Assembly: GCA_018127085.1 (NCBI GenBank)
Contig: CM030720.1
Span: forward strand, 558,001 to 622,000
DNA length: 64,000 nt
Direction of reading: 5' to 3'
Source: Pneumocystis sp. 'macacae'
Taxonomy: Eukaryota > Ascomycota > Pneumocystomycetes > Pneumocystales > Pneumocystaceae
Shown: positions 1,223 through 9,968 of the stretch, piece after piece
Numbering within the stretch: the stretch's first letter is position 1
How the letters are laid out: each line of letters begins with the position of its first letter
Position numbers and translations under genes: made by a program
The notes under the pieces: model-generated
What the model saw: the letters and a program-made list of their open reading frames with translations, nothing else
The model's database searches: none
What the model was told of the DNA's origin: nothing

Positions 1223-3188
1223 ATGGTGTTTATAGTTAATTTTTTTTTTTTTCGAAAAAAAATAGATAAGTTTTGTATAAGAAAATCAAGCATTAAACCA
1301 CAAAATCTTGGAAAGAGTATGTTGTATCCAGCAATTCGAAAACAATTGAAACTTTATAAAACAGTGGATTTGAATGCTCTTATCTATGGGTTGCAGGATT
1401 TCTCAAATGCTATGGATAGCCTTTTGCCAGAAAAAAAATTTAAAATGATTCGCAAATTACAAAGATTATATGAGAAACCTGTTGAAATGATCGTTTTGTC
1501 TCAAGGCTCATATAGATTAGAATATAAAAATCATTTTGAGAAAAAGAATTCTCGTTTTGTATGTATTTGGTTTTTTTAAATATTAAGTTAATCTTGCTTT
1601 AGTTGCTTGCACAAATGGCAAAATGTTTTGAAACATTTGATAAAGAAAGCATTCTCGAAATTTTGAATTTTTCTGTTTATTTAGGAAATGTTTCTGAAAC
1701 ACTAATACATTTTTATCTTTATAAAATATACTCTCTTAATAGAAGAAAAGAAGGTTTACTACTTTTACAAAGATTTTTAGAAACACTTATTAGTGTTGAT
1801 TTGAAAAGAAAACTAATGGGTATTTCGGCTATTAATATTGCAAAATTAGAAACTCAGTATTTGTATAAAGATATGGAAATATCATGTAAGTTTTTAACAA
1901 AGTCTTATATTTACTAAAATATTGATTAGTTGCTATGATGTTTGCAAAAAAATCTTTTTCCAAAGACATATATAATATGGTCAGAGTCTATATATTGAAA
2001 ATTTATTGCATACAAGGCAAAAGCCGAAAGGCCATACATATACTTGGCGAATTACTCAAAACCAATAGGATCCCGTCTTTTTCAATCATGAATATCCTAT
2101 TGAAAACTGTTTTAAATAAAAATGCATTTACTGACAATGTAAAAAGAGAGTCTGATCTTATGTTTTTCTACAATAAAATATTTTCTAATTTATCTCCAAA
2201 TTTTGAAACTATTAAAATTCTCGCAAACTCTTCTTTAACTTACAATGAATTCGCTAAATTATGGAGGCTTGTAATCAACCATCCTTATAAGAACAAAATA
2301 ATAGAAGGATGTCAAATTGAAATTGCACGGGCTTTTTTAAAGTTTGGTCGCAAGTCCCGGGAATTATCTAATCTCAGTCTCTATTTGAATGCAAATGTTA
2401 TGAATTTTCTTCAGTATCTCGCATTAAATGTCAAAATATACAAAAACACAATTATTTATCTAATTTTATGTTGTTCTTTATTTGATAATTTCGTTGGTCT
2501 TAGGCTATGCTTTGAAATCCTAAATCGACATCAGTGGAAATTATCTGCAAAACACTATGCCGCAATTTACAGGCAAACTTTTGACCTGAATTCCAGAAGC
2601 CCAAACGCTCAGAGACATCAATTCATCAAACATTTATGGATGCAAAATGAGCAAGAAGCCCTGGCTTCTCTCTCGAAAAAAGACGCCACCCAGCACTTTC
2701 TGGTCGAATATCTTCGATGCATGGGAAGCTTCAATGACCTGCACGAGATTTCCCGTCTCGCAAAAAAAGACTCCCCACTCAAAAAGGGATCCATCATCGG
2801 CTTTATAGAGGCATTCAATCTTGCAAACGCACACACAGAGAGCCTCCTACTACTCAAGTCGCCCACACTCAGAACAAACTTCGACCTCAATCTTGCAAGA
2901 TGCCTTTTCAACAATATCCAGACCACATCTGCATGGTGCCATGTTCTGCATGCTGTTTCTCTCCTGCTTGTCCGCAGCTGCATCATTCTTCCGCCGCATT
3001 TTTTCCTAGACATATGGCAAAAAGCCCCCCACCGCTTCAGAGCTCCCTCCACAACCCATCTGCTTACACACTACACCGCCTTCCTAAATACAGTCACACA
3101 CGACCTTCTTGCCCACACAGACATTCACTCCGCTCTCGCCCTCCTCGAGGCTGTCGACTGCTCTGTCTCTACAAATACAATCTGCTGA
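1223..3188 (+). CDS. Alpha-helical repeat (PPR-like) protein, possibly mitochondrial
   Basis: Three exons join in frame: 1223-1558, 1603-1885 and 1930-3188. The product is about 625 residues, rich in amphipathic helices with a pentatricopeptide/TPR feel, for example KAIHILGELLKTNRIPSFS and KLSAKHYAAIYRQTFD. The basic, aromatic N-terminus could be a mitochondrial presequence; a second possible start is Met at 1319. I do not recognise a specific orthologue; yeast Ccm1/Dmr1-type PPR proteins are the nearest kind I can suggest. Base composition changes sharply inside the last exon. Up to about 2580 it is AT-rich like the rest of the window, and from there to the stop it becomes increasingly GC-rich with no break in frame. 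It converges on TLG2, with 86 bases between the stops. Confidence 0.65.
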
Positions 3189-3274
3189 CCACCTGCCACT
3201 GTCCCTAACCCGGCCCTAGCCCTGCACCTGCAACCCTGACCTGCATTCTCCTAGCCCTTGCCCTATTCCGAACC

Positions 3275-5243
<1,969 letters not shown>

Positions 5244-5274
5244 AGGCTCTGTGCGGAGAAAGAGGGTCTTGGTC

Positions 5275-6758
5275 CTATGGAGAGTCTGGGGGGTGGGTGG
5301 CGTCGATGAGCTCGTCCTCGATGCTGAGGAGCCGGGCACGCTTGAGGTCGGCGACGATGGTTTCTGCGTGGTCGAGGGGCACAGAGGCAAGGACGCGGTT
5401 GATGTTGTCGAGGCAGCCGCTGTGGAGGGCGGCCTGGAGATCGGGGGAGAAGGCGTCGAAGATGCGGCGGGCAGCAGCGGTGTCTGGGTCGGGGGAGTCG
5501 GGGGGCGGGATGGAGATGGAGATGCGGGAGGCGGGGTCGACGGGGTGGAGCTGGATCTGCTCGACGGGGGTGGAGTCGCGCTCGAGGAGGATTTCGGCGG
5601 CGCGGACGCGGATGCGGGCGTAGGTCTGGGCGACGTCGTCGTTGAAGAGGGAGTGTGCAGCGTGGTTGGGGGCGGTGACGCTGGGGGGTGAGGGGGGAGG
5701 GGGGGAGGGGGGGGGATACCGCTGGAAAAAGAGGGAGACGCCGTCCTTGCCGAGCTGGCGGCAGTACTGGAGGAGGAGGCCCTGGTGGACAGACTGCCTG
5801 GCAAGAGTGTGGTTGCCGTGCATCTGGTGGTTGAAGGCGTCGATGAGGAGGCCGTCAGTCTCGCGGTCGTCGTCGACGATGTCGGGGTGGCGGCTGATGA
5901 AGTCGAGGAGGGCGTGGTAGTTGTTGGAGTCGAGGGCGGCAAACTGTCTGGCAGCAGGGGAGGGTTCTATGTGTTCAGAGGGGTCGTCGGGGGGGGAGCC
6001 TGGATTTTCTCCGAGAGCATGTTTGTTGAGGACCTCGTATGTCTGTATTTTTTTCCTTTCTTTCTTCGCAGGAGCCTTTGTTATAGACTAGAGAGTTAGA
6101 TAGAAATGAAGATGTGGGTACACACAGAGCTTTCGAAGCCGACGTGTATGTCGTCGGAGGTGATTTTGTCTTTGCCCTGCTGCTCGAGCTGCTGGAGGTC
6201 CTGGGTAGCCTTGGTGACCAGGGCCTGGAGCTTGTCGATGTTTTTTTCGAGCTCGGAGATGAAGAGTGTGCGGCGGGGATCGCCCTGGAGCGGGTCTAGG
6301 CGCTGTCTGACCTGTTCGACGAGGGTGCCGATGGAGACGTGGTGTTTGAGGGCGCCGTCTATGTCGGGGGTGTTTTCAAGCCTGATTTTGGCCAGGATGT
6401 CGTCGACAACGGTGTCAGGACACTGGTCTGTGGAGGTTTTGAGGGCCTCGATTATGCGGGAGATCTGCTCGATGAGGCCGGAGTTCATTTGGAGGCTGAA
6501 GGAGGCGTCCTGGATTGCTCTTTTGCGTGCCTGGCGCTTCTCGTGGATGTCCCGCTGCTTCCATCGGATAAACGAGCGTTTGTCGACATTTGGGTGGACT
6601 GTAGGGAGTTTTAGTTGTGTTTGGGGGGCAATGCTTGTCCAGACCTTCAATGTCGCTGTGGATGTGTGTTAGCTGGTCCGAGTGGGTCTGTATATATGTT
6701 ATCAGTACCTGTCATCGCTCAATTCCAGTTTGTCCCATTTGGAGTAGTCCAGCACCAT
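5275..6758 (-). CDS. CDC37: Hsp90 co-chaperone Cdc37
   Basis: Kinase-client adaptor for Hsp90. Exons on the minus strand are 6758-6709, 6655-6645, 6598-6126 and 6087-5275, giving 448 residues. The start MVLDYSKWDKLELSDD joins an 11-base exon and then VHPNVDKRSFIRWKQRDIHE, the signature N-terminal Cdc37 segment; the Ser in LSDDSDIE is the conserved CK2 target position. The middle domain includes YHALLDFISRHPDIV and LLLQYCRQLGKDG. The C-terminal part has VDPASRISISIPPPDSPDP and ends at 5275. A run of Pro and Ser (RYPPPSPPPPSPPS) sits where the DNA is an almost pure G tract on the plus strand. GC content falls from the 3' to the 5' end of the gene. The 5' region faces MDL1. Confidence 0.95.
5683..5715 (+). 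other. G-quadruplex-type poly-G tract inside CDC37
   Basis: Four runs of G (6, 6, 7 and 9 bases) are separated by one to three bases on the plus strand. They encode the Pro/Ser run of Cdc37 on the minus strand. This satisfies the usual G4 pattern of four G-runs with short loops. Confidence 0.8.
6645..6655 (-). other. 11-base microexon of CDC37
   Basis: Required to join LSDDS to VHPNVDK: the 11 bases encode DIE plus the flanking split codons. The preceding intron (6708-6656) and following intron (6644-6599) both have GT and AG ends. Confidence 0.8.
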
Positions 6759-7067
6759 TTTGAGTAGAAAAAAGAGTTCAGAAGCTGCAAAAAAGGTGTT
6801 ATTGAACGTATGTGTTTTCAATTGGAATACAGTAAAAAATCTGTGGAAAACAATAGTATTTGTGGGTGTTTTGCTGATATAGAGTATATCACTTTTTTCA
6901 AAGGGTTGGGAGAAGTCTCGACTGACGTGCTGAAAACCAGAAAAAAACAATTTTTTGATAAATAAATAGATAAAGCAGGATTGAAGACATTGGGTCGACT
7001 TTGGGTGTTTTTTGAGACACAAAGACCTTTTCCATGTTTTTTGCAGTCTTGGCGATAAAGCAAAACA

Positions 7068-9968
7068 ATGATTTTTAGGGAATTTAAAACATCATTTAGA
7101 CCTATAAGGAGGCAAAGTGAGATATTTGCTCGTTTTTTATATACACATGAGTATGTATTGGTGGATGCCGCTTGGAAATGGTTGTTTGATTGGAGAATCA
7201 GGAGACTATATACGTGTAAATGGGGTTCTTTGCGATGCAATAGATTCTGTTTTATAGAAAAAAGGCCCCTTTGTTTGATATTTGATTTACCGTCAAGATC
7301 TCCTTTTTTTTATCTTGGTTTTGAGAGAAGTATTTACTATGATCATGTGCGTTTGCACTGAAAAGATATATATTTGTAATTGTAACTAGAAAAATGGGAA
7401 AAATCATCAGGATATACAAAATACAGTCATCCGTTCGAGAATAATGTTTTCTGAATTAAAACGGTTTGTTGGGTTGCTTAAAGGCGAAACGAGAATGTTG
7501 TCGGGTAATTTCTAAGGGTATTTATAGTATCTTATCTCAACGTAATAGTTGCTATTGTTTTTCTCTTTTTCGGGTCTTCTGTTTCTATGTCTATGCCGTA
7601 TGCATACGAGTTTTTTGAGGAAAATCTTATTTATTAAAGATATGTTATTGGGAAGATTCTGGATTTTATGGTTCAACCATTTAAAGGCACTTTTTTTGGA
7701 ATTGAGCCTTTTTATTTTTATACAGGACTTGCTGCTGTTTTCCTAATCAGCGGAGCATCTAATTTTGGACGTACTCTTCTTTTGCGGATTATTAGTGAAA
7801 GAGTTATATCCAAACTACGATCACGTTTATATCAAAATACTATTAGACAAAATGTAGAATTTTTTAATGTTAATTCGTAAGATGTTTTTATTTTCAAAAG
7901 TTTTACTAATATAGTTTAAGGAGTGGAGACTTGATTTCACGTTTATCTTCAGGTAGAACATGTGTTTTTGTATTATTCTTTATTTTTTTCTTTAGATACA
8001 GCGATTGTTGCTAAAACTCTTACTCAAAACTTCTCTGATGGCTTAAAATCTTTAATCACTACAACTGCTGGACTTACAATGATGACATGGATATCAGTAA
8101 AATTAACTTCAGTCATGATGTTAATTATGCCGCCAATTGTTATCGGTTCAGTGAGTGTTATTACTTTGTTGGTTTTCATTAATTTTTAGGTCTTTTATGG
8201 GCGCTATATAAAAGCTTTATCGAAAAAAATCCAGAAAACTTTAGGGGATTTAACAAAAGTCTCCGAGAATCTTAGAAATATATATACAAGTAATTGAAAT
8301 CAATTTTTGATCGTTATTTCTAATGTGTATATAGTTAAAGCTTTTACAGGTATATTTTAGACATTTAAAATTATTGTTTATAAAGTAGGCGAAATACTTG
8401 AATTACGGTCTTATAATAATAAAATCCGAGAAGTTTTCCGATTAAATAAGAAGGATGTATGAGGGTCACACATATTATATACTTGTTATAACATAGATCC
8501 TAGGCATTTCTTAATAGTACATTTTTAGGATTAGTAAAATTTGAAAATTATTTTTATATAATATTAAAATCTTCAGATTGGGTTATCTGGGAACATGGTA
8601 GTGTTACTTATTCTTGCTTTTGGAGGACGCATGGTTAGTAATTCTGTTATAACTATCGGTGATCTTAGTTCCTTTTTGTTATATACGGCATATACAGGGA
8701 ATTCCATGATTGGGCTAAGTGGGTTTTATTCTGAATTTATTAAAGGATTAGGTGCATCATCTCGATTGTTTGAATTATTGGACAAAAAACCGTTTATAAA
8801 ATCCACAGGTCTAGCTTGTTTATATTTAAAATTAAAACTTATATTACGATACTAGGTATTCCTGTGACTAGTATTAAAGGACCTATTTATTTTAAAGATG
8901 GTGAATTGGATATTCTTGTTTTATCTAATATTGATTTTTAGTTTGTTTTGCATATCCTTCTTGTCCAGATATACCTATTTTTTCTAAATTATCATTTACA
9001 ATAGAGCAAGGTACAAATGTTGCAATTTGTGGTCCTAGCGGAGGAGGTAGTTAACATATTTGTTTTATTTTTAATTTTTTTCTGATAAAAGTAGGAAAAT
9101 CAACAATTGGTCTGCATTCCTGATTTTAAATGGTTAACTAAAATAATAACAGCATCACTTCTTCTAAGATTTTATGACGTAGACTCTGGAAAAATAACTA
9201 TTAATAATATAGATATTCGGGAATTTAATTTAAAACAATTTCGAAAGAAAATCGGTATTGTACCACAGAATCCTGTGCTTTTTTCTGGTACTATAAAAGA
9301 AAATATTGTTTATGGAAAACCGGATGCAACATTAGAAGAAATAATAAGAACAATAAAAAAATCGAACTCGAATTTTATTATGGACTTTCCTGATGGTATT
9401 AATACCTATATTGGAAATAACGGTGTGCAACTAAGGTAAATTTTGTTAATTATTTAATTATTTTAACTTTTAGTTAGTGGGGGGCAAAAACAAAGGTATG
9501 TTAATAATGAAATAATATATACTTGACTATATTTCCATAATTTAGGATTGCAATTGCTAGAGCATTGATTAGAAATCCTGAAATATTAATTTTAGACGAA
9601 GGTAGTTTTAATTTTTTTTTTTTTTCTAAAATATTAAGCTACATCTGCACTTGTACATATAATATAATGTGTTTTTGTGTTGATTATTTCTAGGATGGAA
9701 AATCTGAGGTTTTAGTTGATGAAGCATTACAAAATTTGATTCAGCAAGAAAATCTTACTTCAATAACTATTGGTAAATATAAACTCATATATTTCATTTG
9801 CTAATTTTTTTGTTTTAAGCTCATCGACTTGCTACAATTCAAAGAGCTGATAAAATTATTGTTTTAAATCAAAAAGATAAAGTAATTGAAGAAGGCACTT
9901 ATATGGAATTAAGTAAAAACATAAATTCTGCATTTACAAGATTGATGAAGTCTCAAATGTGTGGATAG
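7068..9968 (+). CDS. MDL1: Mitochondrial ABC half-transporter (Mdl1/ABCB10 type)
   Basis: Inner-membrane exporter with one transmembrane and one nucleotide-binding domain. I resolve 20 exons summing exactly to 693 codons (692 residues, close to yeast Mdl1). The first exon (7068-7346) is Arg/aromatic-rich, fits a mitochondrial presequence, and splices in frame to 7390. Membrane region: VAIVFLFFGSSVSMSMPY, then GLAAVFLISGASNF and ITTTAGLTMMTWISV. Nucleotide-binding domain: Walker A GPSGGGKST (split by an intron), Q-loop IVPQNPVLFSG, signature LSGGQKQR, Walker B ILILDEATSALD and H-loop AHRLATIQ. Exons at 8335-8349, 8504-8533, 9095-9109, 9478-9495 and 9639-9652 are only 14-30 bases, so simple ORF calling would fragment the gene. 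Motif completeness indicates a functional transporter. Confidence 0.93.

What the first reader, a model, noticed from the sequence alone, without database searches (positions are those of the whole stretch)
2600..6760. A GC-rich island with edges inside genes in an AT-rich genome
Composition swings from strongly AT to strongly GC and back over about 4 kb. It spans four genes on both strands and includes introns and intergenic bases. The shift starts inside the last exon of the PPR-like gene and ends inside CDC37, whose 3' part is far richer than its 5' part. Ordinary fungal genes (TLG2, CMD1, CDC37) are intact, yet their proteins are skewed to Ala, Gly, Arg and Pro. A graded peak fits GC-biased gene conversion at a long-lived recombination hotspot better than transfer. 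I know of no described island like this around calmodulin.
Basis: partly seen in the sequence, partly recalled or inferred. Interest (0 to 1): 0.85.

Follow-up and report, generated by a model that had tools for sequence, protein, structure and literature searches.

The report
GC islands flanking presumed recombination breaks
The DNA of a macaque lung fungus carries dozens of small GC-rich islands in which an excess of C turns into an excess of G near the middle, which looks like the worn-in mark of chromosome breaks that happen at the same places generation after generation.

Summary
The island is real: 200-base windows of 44-71% GC from 2601 to 6800, against about 26% in the rest of the window. 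It is not peculiar to calmodulin. The genome, Pneumocystis sp. 'macacae', has 45 places with strong evidence of such islands; I read 19 in full. All 19 are 2.7-6.1 kb at 58-66% GC, and in all 19 GC skew is more negative left of the middle than right of it. The skew follows position, not transcription: genes read away from and towards the centre have opposite coding-strand skews. Mean AT skew is zero. Proteins are dragged along: GARP/FYMINK 1.32 for Cdc37 against 0.50-0.65 in six sister species, and 2.74 for Rrn3 against 0.36 and 0.38 in two. Best reading: meiotic double-strand-break hotspots with strong GC-biased gene conversion that favours C on the 3'-ended strand; the window island arose after the split from P. 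jirovecii. No recombination or polymorphism data were available. An 11-bp minisatellite forms arrays in 12 of the 19 islands.

The parts
2600..6800 (.). GC-rich island (44-71% GC per 200 bases); core at or above 50% GC is 2941-6610
4564..4564 (.). point where GC skew changes sign (minimum of cumulative G-C in the core), between the start codons of the divergent genes TLG2 (4537, minus) and CMD1 (4565, plus)
   Evidence: skew of the halves -0.27 and +0.36
2600..4563 (.). left arm, C-rich on the plus strand
4565..6800 (.). right arm, G-rich on the plus strand
   Evidence: coding-strand third-position skew -0.53
3512..3859 (-). TLG2 (Qa-SNARE) second exon, at least this part
   Evidence: match to Tlg2 of 6xm1/6xmd
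3887..4226 (+). 11-bp minisatellite (YGCATAYA plus 3 bases), 21 core units, between the two TLG2 exons
4229..4537 (-). TLG2 first exon
   Evidence: match to Tlg2 of 6xm1/6xmd; GC3 0.87
4565..5243 (+). CMD1 (calmodulin), three GC-rich introns (4761-4792, 4997-5151, 5187-5225; the acceptor at 5151 is read from the sequence; one search used 5147, which breaks the frame)
   Evidence: EF hands; introns
5275..6758 (-). CDC37; my spliced frame is identical to the public protein PMAC_000219
   Evidence: Pfam, splice, identity
5681..5719 (-). likely 39-nt C-rich intron of CDC37 (29 C) that the public protein, and my spliced frame, read as about YPPPSPPPPSPPS
   Evidence: the splice reading is inference from the alignment

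Best explanation
The island is one of dozens of places in the P. macacae genome where meiotic double-strand breaks are made at the same spot over evolutionary time. Around each break the 5' ends are cut back, so the 3'-ended single strand is the plus strand on the left and the minus strand on the right. In the heteroduplex formed by that strand, repair keeps G or C over A or T, and keeps C on the 3'-ended strand most strongly. Fixation bias then drives about 2 kb on each side towards 65% GC, C-rich left and G-rich right, regardless of coding function. Shown here: the islands, a lower bound of their number, the skew reversal, its independence of transcription, zero mean AT skew, and a lineage-specific protein shift in the two island genes compared. 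Inferred: that the central event is a Spo11 break and that the bias acts in repair rather than in mutation.
For: Right-minus-left skew is positive in 19 of 19 islands (mean 0.58, minimum 0.18; 102 overlapping control windows from the rest of this window have mean -0.004, SD 0.104, maximum 0.31). Mean GC half-height lies at -1.9 and +2.0 kb; in human hotspots resection gives 2-4 kb of single-stranded DNA per break and strand-asymmetric mutation in the flanking 2 kb (PMC7615360, passages), and in mouse the single strands lie on Watson left and Crick right (PMC7447979, passages). Mean coding-strand third-position skew is +0.44 for pieces transcribed away from the centre and -0.445 for pieces transcribed towards it. 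Places not fetched: in 8 of 8 run clusters with both kinds, C-runs lie left of G-runs (5-kb linking). Composition of the 3'-ended strand: A 0.200, C 0.388, G 0.213, T 0.199; AT skew 0.001 (-0.029 to 0.029); a transition-only mutation bias fitted to C and G would give 0.44. Cdc37 replacements raise against lower GC potential 23 to 4 in macacae and 1 to 4 in jirovecii. A Spo11-type domain is present. In the window the flip lies between two divergent start codons with 27 bases between them.
Against: No recombination, break or polymorphism data. A mutational bias towards C on the single strand that uses transitions and transversions equally would also give zero AT skew. AT skew is zero only on average: single island halves range from -0.14 to +0.25. 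L030 has its flip 1.3 kb from the GC midpoint and a left half at +0.01. With 6-kb linking, one more unfetched cluster (C2:69.6-75.9 kb) has the reverse order. In seven islands (L022, L025, L027, L028, L029, L032, L033) the flip lies inside a Pfam-matched stop-to-stop frame, not clearly at a promoter. The calmodulin exons themselves have only weak third-position skew (+0.07 to +0.09). Promoter-like hotspots are described as evolutionarily stable (abstract start of PMC11703093, listing), yet the Cdc37 island is not seen in P. jirovecii.
Confidence: 0.72

Rival explanations
1. Break-associated mutation rather than biased repair: error-prone synthesis on the resected single strand at the same hotspots adds C (G on the new strand), and composition drifts to 65% GC without fixation bias.
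For: Meiotic breaks are mutagenic with strand asymmetry in the flanking 2 kb (PMC7615360, passages). Cdc37 shows 44 lineage-specific replacements in macacae against 7 in jirovecii.
Against: Mean AT skew is zero, where transition-only mutation would give 0.44. The passages read describe C>N and A>N changes on the forward strand, which would not obviously build C.
Confidence: 0.14
2. Replication origins: each island is a strong fixed origin, and leading-strand bias makes G rise to the right and C to the left.
For: The sign of the reversal is that of a bidirectional origin as known from bacteria (recalled). The pattern is transcription-independent.
Against: Mean skew returns to about zero within 3-3.5 kb of the centre instead of extending over a replicon. 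Origins are not known to raise GC from 30 to 65% (recalled). 45 strong places in 8.3 Mb is few for a yeast-like genome (a lower bound; origin density recalled).
Confidence: 0.07
3. Kinetochore or other chromatin-bound sites: the islands are extra Mis12-binding places, and binding or breakage there shapes composition.
For: Mis12 ChIP-seq in P. macacae gave about 4-6 peaks per chromosome, tending to lie in GC-rich regions, which the authors could not explain (PMC10327204, passage). My union count is 67 clusters in a genome of 19 contigs.
Against: The authors allow that the peaks may be artefacts. CENP-A regions of P. murina and P. carinii are on average 3.9% poorer in GC. Binding alone does not explain a strand skew that reverses. 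I could not compare coordinates.
Confidence: 0.04
4. Promoter CpG islands with R-loops: G-rich transcribed regions diverging from a shared promoter.
For: In the window the flip lies between divergent genes.
Against: Genes transcribed towards the centre have the opposite coding-strand skew (17 of 19 pieces fit the positional sign). The sign flips inside UCH, RRN3 and Usp, and more weakly inside MMM1/PH and AAR2. CpG observed/expected is 0.84 in islands and in flanks.
Confidence: 0.01
5. Horizontal transfer, contamination or an assembly join.
For: Composition changes within genes over a few hundred bases.
Against: Cdc37 is nearest to P. jirovecii and other Pneumocystis over its whole length. 19 of 19 islands read share one two-armed form and hold ordinary conserved genes.
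Confidence: 0.02

Closest known systems
Mouse meiotic DSB hotspots (Smagulova et al. 2011, Nature; recalled, not held)
   Same: A nucleotide skew that changes polarity at the hotspot centre (as I recall its abstract).
   Different: There the skew is an average over thousands of PRDM9-directed, short-lived sites (recalled); here it is plain in single loci, with GC raised by more than 30 points, in a fungus.
Human hotspot mutagenesis (PMC7615360, passages read)
   Same: Strand-asymmetric change in about 2 kb on each side of the break.
   Different: Described as new and very rare mutations, not as a base-composition landscape; the changes named (C>N, A>N on the forward strand) are not gain of C.
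Gerbil runaway-GC regions (PMC7403616, passages read)
   Same: Extreme weak-to-strong change attributed to GC-biased gene conversion, with altered protein sequences.
   Different: Clusters called in 1-Mb windows; 'GC skew' there means GC-rich evolution, and no strand reversal was in the passages I saw.
Mis12 ChIP peaks of P. macacae (PMC10327204, passages and section 13 read)
   Same: Same species, about 4-6 GC-rich places per chromosome.
   Different: Reported briefly as possibly artefacts; no strand-skew or recombination analysis in the passages read (GC skew and recombination: 0 occurrences).

Membership tests
Meiotic DSB hotspot with GC-biased gene conversion | Local GC rise in coding and non-coding DNA alike | tested here: met
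Meiotic DSB hotspot with GC-biased gene conversion | Strand skew that reverses at the centre, over a width like resection tracts | tested here: met
   19 of 19 islands right-minus-left positive; half-height at -1.9/+2.0 kb; 8 of 8 held-out clusters with 5-kb linking, 8 of 9 with 6-kb linking
Meiotic DSB hotspot with GC-biased gene conversion | Polarised weak-to-strong substitution bias | tested here: met
   at protein level only, one gene: 23 to 4 in Cdc37; Rrn3 composition agrees
Meiotic DSB hotspot with GC-biased gene conversion | Spo11 present | tested here: met
   PF04406 (TP6A_N) at C12:219969-220082, E 4.0e-13, and C12:219853-219936, E 3.2e-4
Meiotic DSB hotspot with GC-biased gene conversion | Measured breaks or crossovers at the site | not testable with these tools
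   no reads, crosses or ChIP data held
Meiotic DSB hotspot with GC-biased gene conversion | Shared cis determinant at the centre | tested here: inconclusive
   11-bp minisatellite arrays in 12 of 19 islands, mostly 0.3-1.5 kb off the flip; k-mers near the flip not specific
Replication origin | Skew extends over the replicon | tested here: not met
   mean skew about zero beyond 3-3.5 kb (flanks of 6 kb at most)
R-loop / CpG-island promoter | Skew follows transcription | tested here: not met
Pneumocystis centromere | One per chromosome, not GC-rich | tested here: not met
   several places on most contigs, GC-rich; yardstick from P. murina and P. carinii in PMC10327204
Horizontally acquired segment | Genes place outside the lineage | tested here: not met
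   Cdc37 ranking and alignment; no tree was built, and Tlg2 and calmodulin were not placed

The most novel reading that the evidence does not exclude
The static genome of a fungus without reliable culture records its own break map: each island is a strand-resolved fossil of resection and heteroduplex repair, showing that GC-biased gene conversion is itself strand-specific (C on the 3'-ended strand favoured, scaled bias about 1.5, over G, about 0.9). The hotspots switched on in the macaque lineage, perhaps with the spread of an 11-bp minisatellite.
Probability: 0.45. Interest if true: 0.92.

Novelty: new variant of a known kind. Interest (0 to 1): 0.82.

Why it matters
GC-biased gene conversion is usually inferred statistically from weak averages. 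Here single loci show what looks like it at great strength, with a strand signature that points to the repair step. It would give a break map for an organism that cannot readily be cultured or crossed. It also warns that proteins in these islands (Cdc37 and Rrn3 were compared) look fast-evolving and compositionally odd for a non-adaptive reason, which can mislead host-adaptation scans, gene prediction and ChIP-seq.

Tried and rejected
Transcription, CpG-island and R-loop readings were rejected by the orientation test. Centromeres were rejected by number and GC. A mobile element was considered because all-against-all BLAST linked many islands; the shared sequence looked at turned out to be the 11-bp minisatellite, and 7 of 19 islands lack a tandem array of it. 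A motif at the flip was sought by k-mer counts; the top words were GC-rich and not specific enough to claim. A T:G-glycosylase route was looked at: UDG-superfamily matches exist at two places, but the family search cannot tell TDG from UNG. Purely mutational transition bias fits poorly.

Rows dropped or flawed: the TLG2 piece was read out of frame; one search repeats it in frame (third-position skew +0.47), with the same sign. One frame (second SQS_PSY) is 0.1 bit under its Pfam cut-off, and the PPR-like frame has no family match. Two weak Pfam matches (SUZ12-like zinc domain, PHD) were left out of the orientation count because they fall under their cut-offs. In one search the CMD1 C-terminus is mis-spliced by 4 bases. 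The Cdc37 ratio of 1.32 includes the 13 residues that I take for an unspliced intron; without them it is about 1.2 by my arithmetic.
Full report
Observation. In 200-base windows GC is 23-37% up to base 2600, 44-71% from 2601 to 6800, and 24-35% from 6801 to 9000; in 1-kb windows from 7 kb on it is 14-35%. The core at or above 50% GC is 2941-6610 at 61% GC; no 3670-bp stretch of the window starting after base 7000 exceeds 33%. Calmodulin introns are 66-73% GC. Tlg2 is confirmed by solved Tlg2 chains for two exons, calmodulin by EF hands, Cdc37 by three Pfam domains. The spliced Cdc37 is identical over 444 residues to PMAC_000219 of Pneumocystis sp. 'macacae', on a contig of 659,618 bases, the length of C1 here. 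G000 has 19 contigs, while the assembly paper gives 16 scaffolds (PMC7940399, passage). The PPR-like frame has no family match.

Genome-wide. A search for runs of 16 G/C bases gave 235 hits per strand. Lists of maximal runs of exactly 15, exactly 16 and 18 or more, of 16 or more up to C12, of C8 runs and of minisatellite triplets were joined by hand, leaving out homopolymers and runs near contig ends. This gives 67 clusters, 41 with a G/C run of at least 15 (the window counted among them), 45 counted as strong because they have such a run or two kinds of evidence. The window island has no run above 11, so run-based counts are lower bounds; the C7 list (C1 to part of C5 only) shows a few further clusters that are not counted.

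Form. I fetched 20 stretches of 10 kb: one contig end, and 19 stretches around G/C-run places on C1 to C9, two of them contiguous, giving 18 islands; with the window, 19. They were chosen by G/C runs, not by skew. All 19 are 2650-6109 bp at 58-66% GC. With halves set by the GC midpoint, the left half is C-rich in 18 of 19 (the exception, L030, is +0.01 with its flip 1.3 kb off centre) and the right half is G-rich in 19 of 19; flips average 42 bp from the midpoint with SD 431. Right-minus-left skew is positive in 19 of 19 (minimum 0.18, mean 0.58), while 102 overlapping windows from the rest of the window have SD 0.104 and maximum 0.31. As a check on places not fetched, C-runs lie left of G-runs in 8 of 8 clusters holding both kinds; the other 25 of 33 unfetched clusters hold one kind only, and with 6-kb linking it is 8 of 9. 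In fetched places it is 7 of 7 clusters with both kinds, of 17.

Not transcription. Of 60 reading frames given to Pfam, 38 with usable matches plus three window frames were split at the GC midpoint; 46 pieces of at least 50 codons remained. Pieces transcribed away from the centre fit the positional sign in 27 of 27 (mean third-position skew +0.44), pieces transcribed towards it in 17 of 19 (mean -0.445); the two misfits lie between GC midpoint and skew flip. One of the 27 (TLG2) was out of frame and was redone. The sign flips inside single frames that span the centre: UCH (L027, +0.28 to -0.28), RRN3 (L028, -0.37 to +0.23) and Usp (L022, -0.12 to +0.17), and weakly in MMM1/PH (L033, +0.04 to -0.59) and AAR2 (L032, +0.05 to -0.36). 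The genes are ordinary: a core histone, squalene synthase, adenylosuccinate synthetase, RRN3, CDC20, separase and the like.

Mechanism. On the strand whose 3' end points to the centre, the arms (0.3-2 kb from the midpoint) hold A 0.200, C 0.388, G 0.213, T 0.199; GC skew is -0.293 (-0.329 to -0.255) and AT skew 0.001 (-0.029 to 0.029), though single halves vary from -0.14 to +0.25 in AT skew. A transition-only mutation bias fitted to C and G predicts AT skew 0.44, whereas a fixation bias (C 1.51, G 0.91, scaled) predicts zero. The half-height width, -1.9 to +2.0 kb, fits single-strand tracts of meiotic breaks (PMC7615360, passages; PMC7447979, passages). A Spo11-type domain is present. In the window the flip, 4564, lies between the start codons of TLG2 (4537) and CMD1 (4565); in seven other islands it lies inside a Pfam-matched frame. 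That the centre is a Spo11 break is inference.

Age. GARP/FYMINK for Cdc37 is 1.32 in macacae and 0.65, 0.53, 0.50, 0.55, 0.52 and 0.63 in jirovecii, canis, murina, carinii, wakefieldiae and oryctolagi, 0.47 and 0.46 in two unnamed relatives, and 1.09 and 1.03 in the outside fungi Saitoella and Protomyces, so the value is unusual for the genus, not for fungi. At sites where at least four of five outgroup Pneumocystis agree, macacae alone differs at 44 and jirovecii alone at 7; replacements raising GC potential against lowering it are 23 to 4 and 1 to 4. Rrn3, from another island, has 2.74 against 0.36 (murina), 0.38 (carinii), 0.38 and 0.55 (two unnamed) and 0.91 (Neolecta), with 41% identity to murina and carinii; no protein named as P. 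jirovecii Rrn3 was in the list. A control kinase frame of the window has 0.55 against 0.63 (unnamed) and 0.68 (P. canis). The P. jirovecii split is put at about 62 million years (PMC7940399, passages). I built no tree.

Minisatellite. An 11-bp unit, YGCATAYA plus three bases, forms tandem arrays in 12 of 19 islands. Three consecutive units occur 102 times in the genome, none with the pattern reversed (the list of places is cut). Of 35 clusters, 23 coincide with other island evidence. Arrays lie mostly 0.3-1.5 kb from the flip, on either side, so they do not mark the break itself; they may be by-products of template switching or a local determinant (inference).

Literature. PMC10327204 (passages and one section) says Mis12 peaks in P. 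macacae, about 4-6 per chromosome, tend to occur in GC-rich regions, unexplained. Six searches naming Pneumocystis (listings only, 25 of 45 shown and 10 of 221) showed no title or abstract start describing these islands; PMC7940399 and PMC4764891 were searched by term only. The library lacks most subscription journals. The mouse hotspot skew (Smagulova 2011) is recalled.

Noticed in passing
window 5681-5719 (minus): The public Cdc37 protein of P. macacae appears to read a 39-nt C-rich intron (GT...AG, 29 C) as about YPPPSPPPPSPPS inside a block conserved in the other Pneumocystis species; gene models in the islands may often be wrong (the public RRN3 is 347 aa against 592 and 624 aa in P. murina and P. 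carinii).
   Followed up: partly
L017 (C1:1-10000): Contig end with GC 30-60% and a C excess on the plus strand (skew about -0.8 to -0.1 per 400 bases) over the whole 10 kb; by my reading the polarity is opposite to that of an island arm beside a break at the chromosome end.
   Followed up: no
C2:14234, C5:13245, C6:520751, C10:17583, C13:16012, C14:19666: Pure runs of 15 or more G (or C) at about 13-20 kb from contig ends, in an AT-rich genome; a few more lie elsewhere (C10:306591, C12:166683, C12:445201).
   Followed up: no
C3:306, C4:553169, C8:480287, C10:472864, C13:6509, C15:374631, C16:10593 and 338686: One identical G/C word recurs, in either orientation, near contig ends where the contig length or start is known; probably a shared subtelomeric repeat.
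   Followed up: no
C2:297454, C3:309512, C3:348687, C4:250629, C9:97076, C10:257464, C11:265873, C12:291493, C14:248153, C15:145689, C15:256577, C16:173478: Twelve places with the 11-bp minisatellite but without the other island evidence I listed; they could be weaker, younger or dead islands.
   Followed up: no
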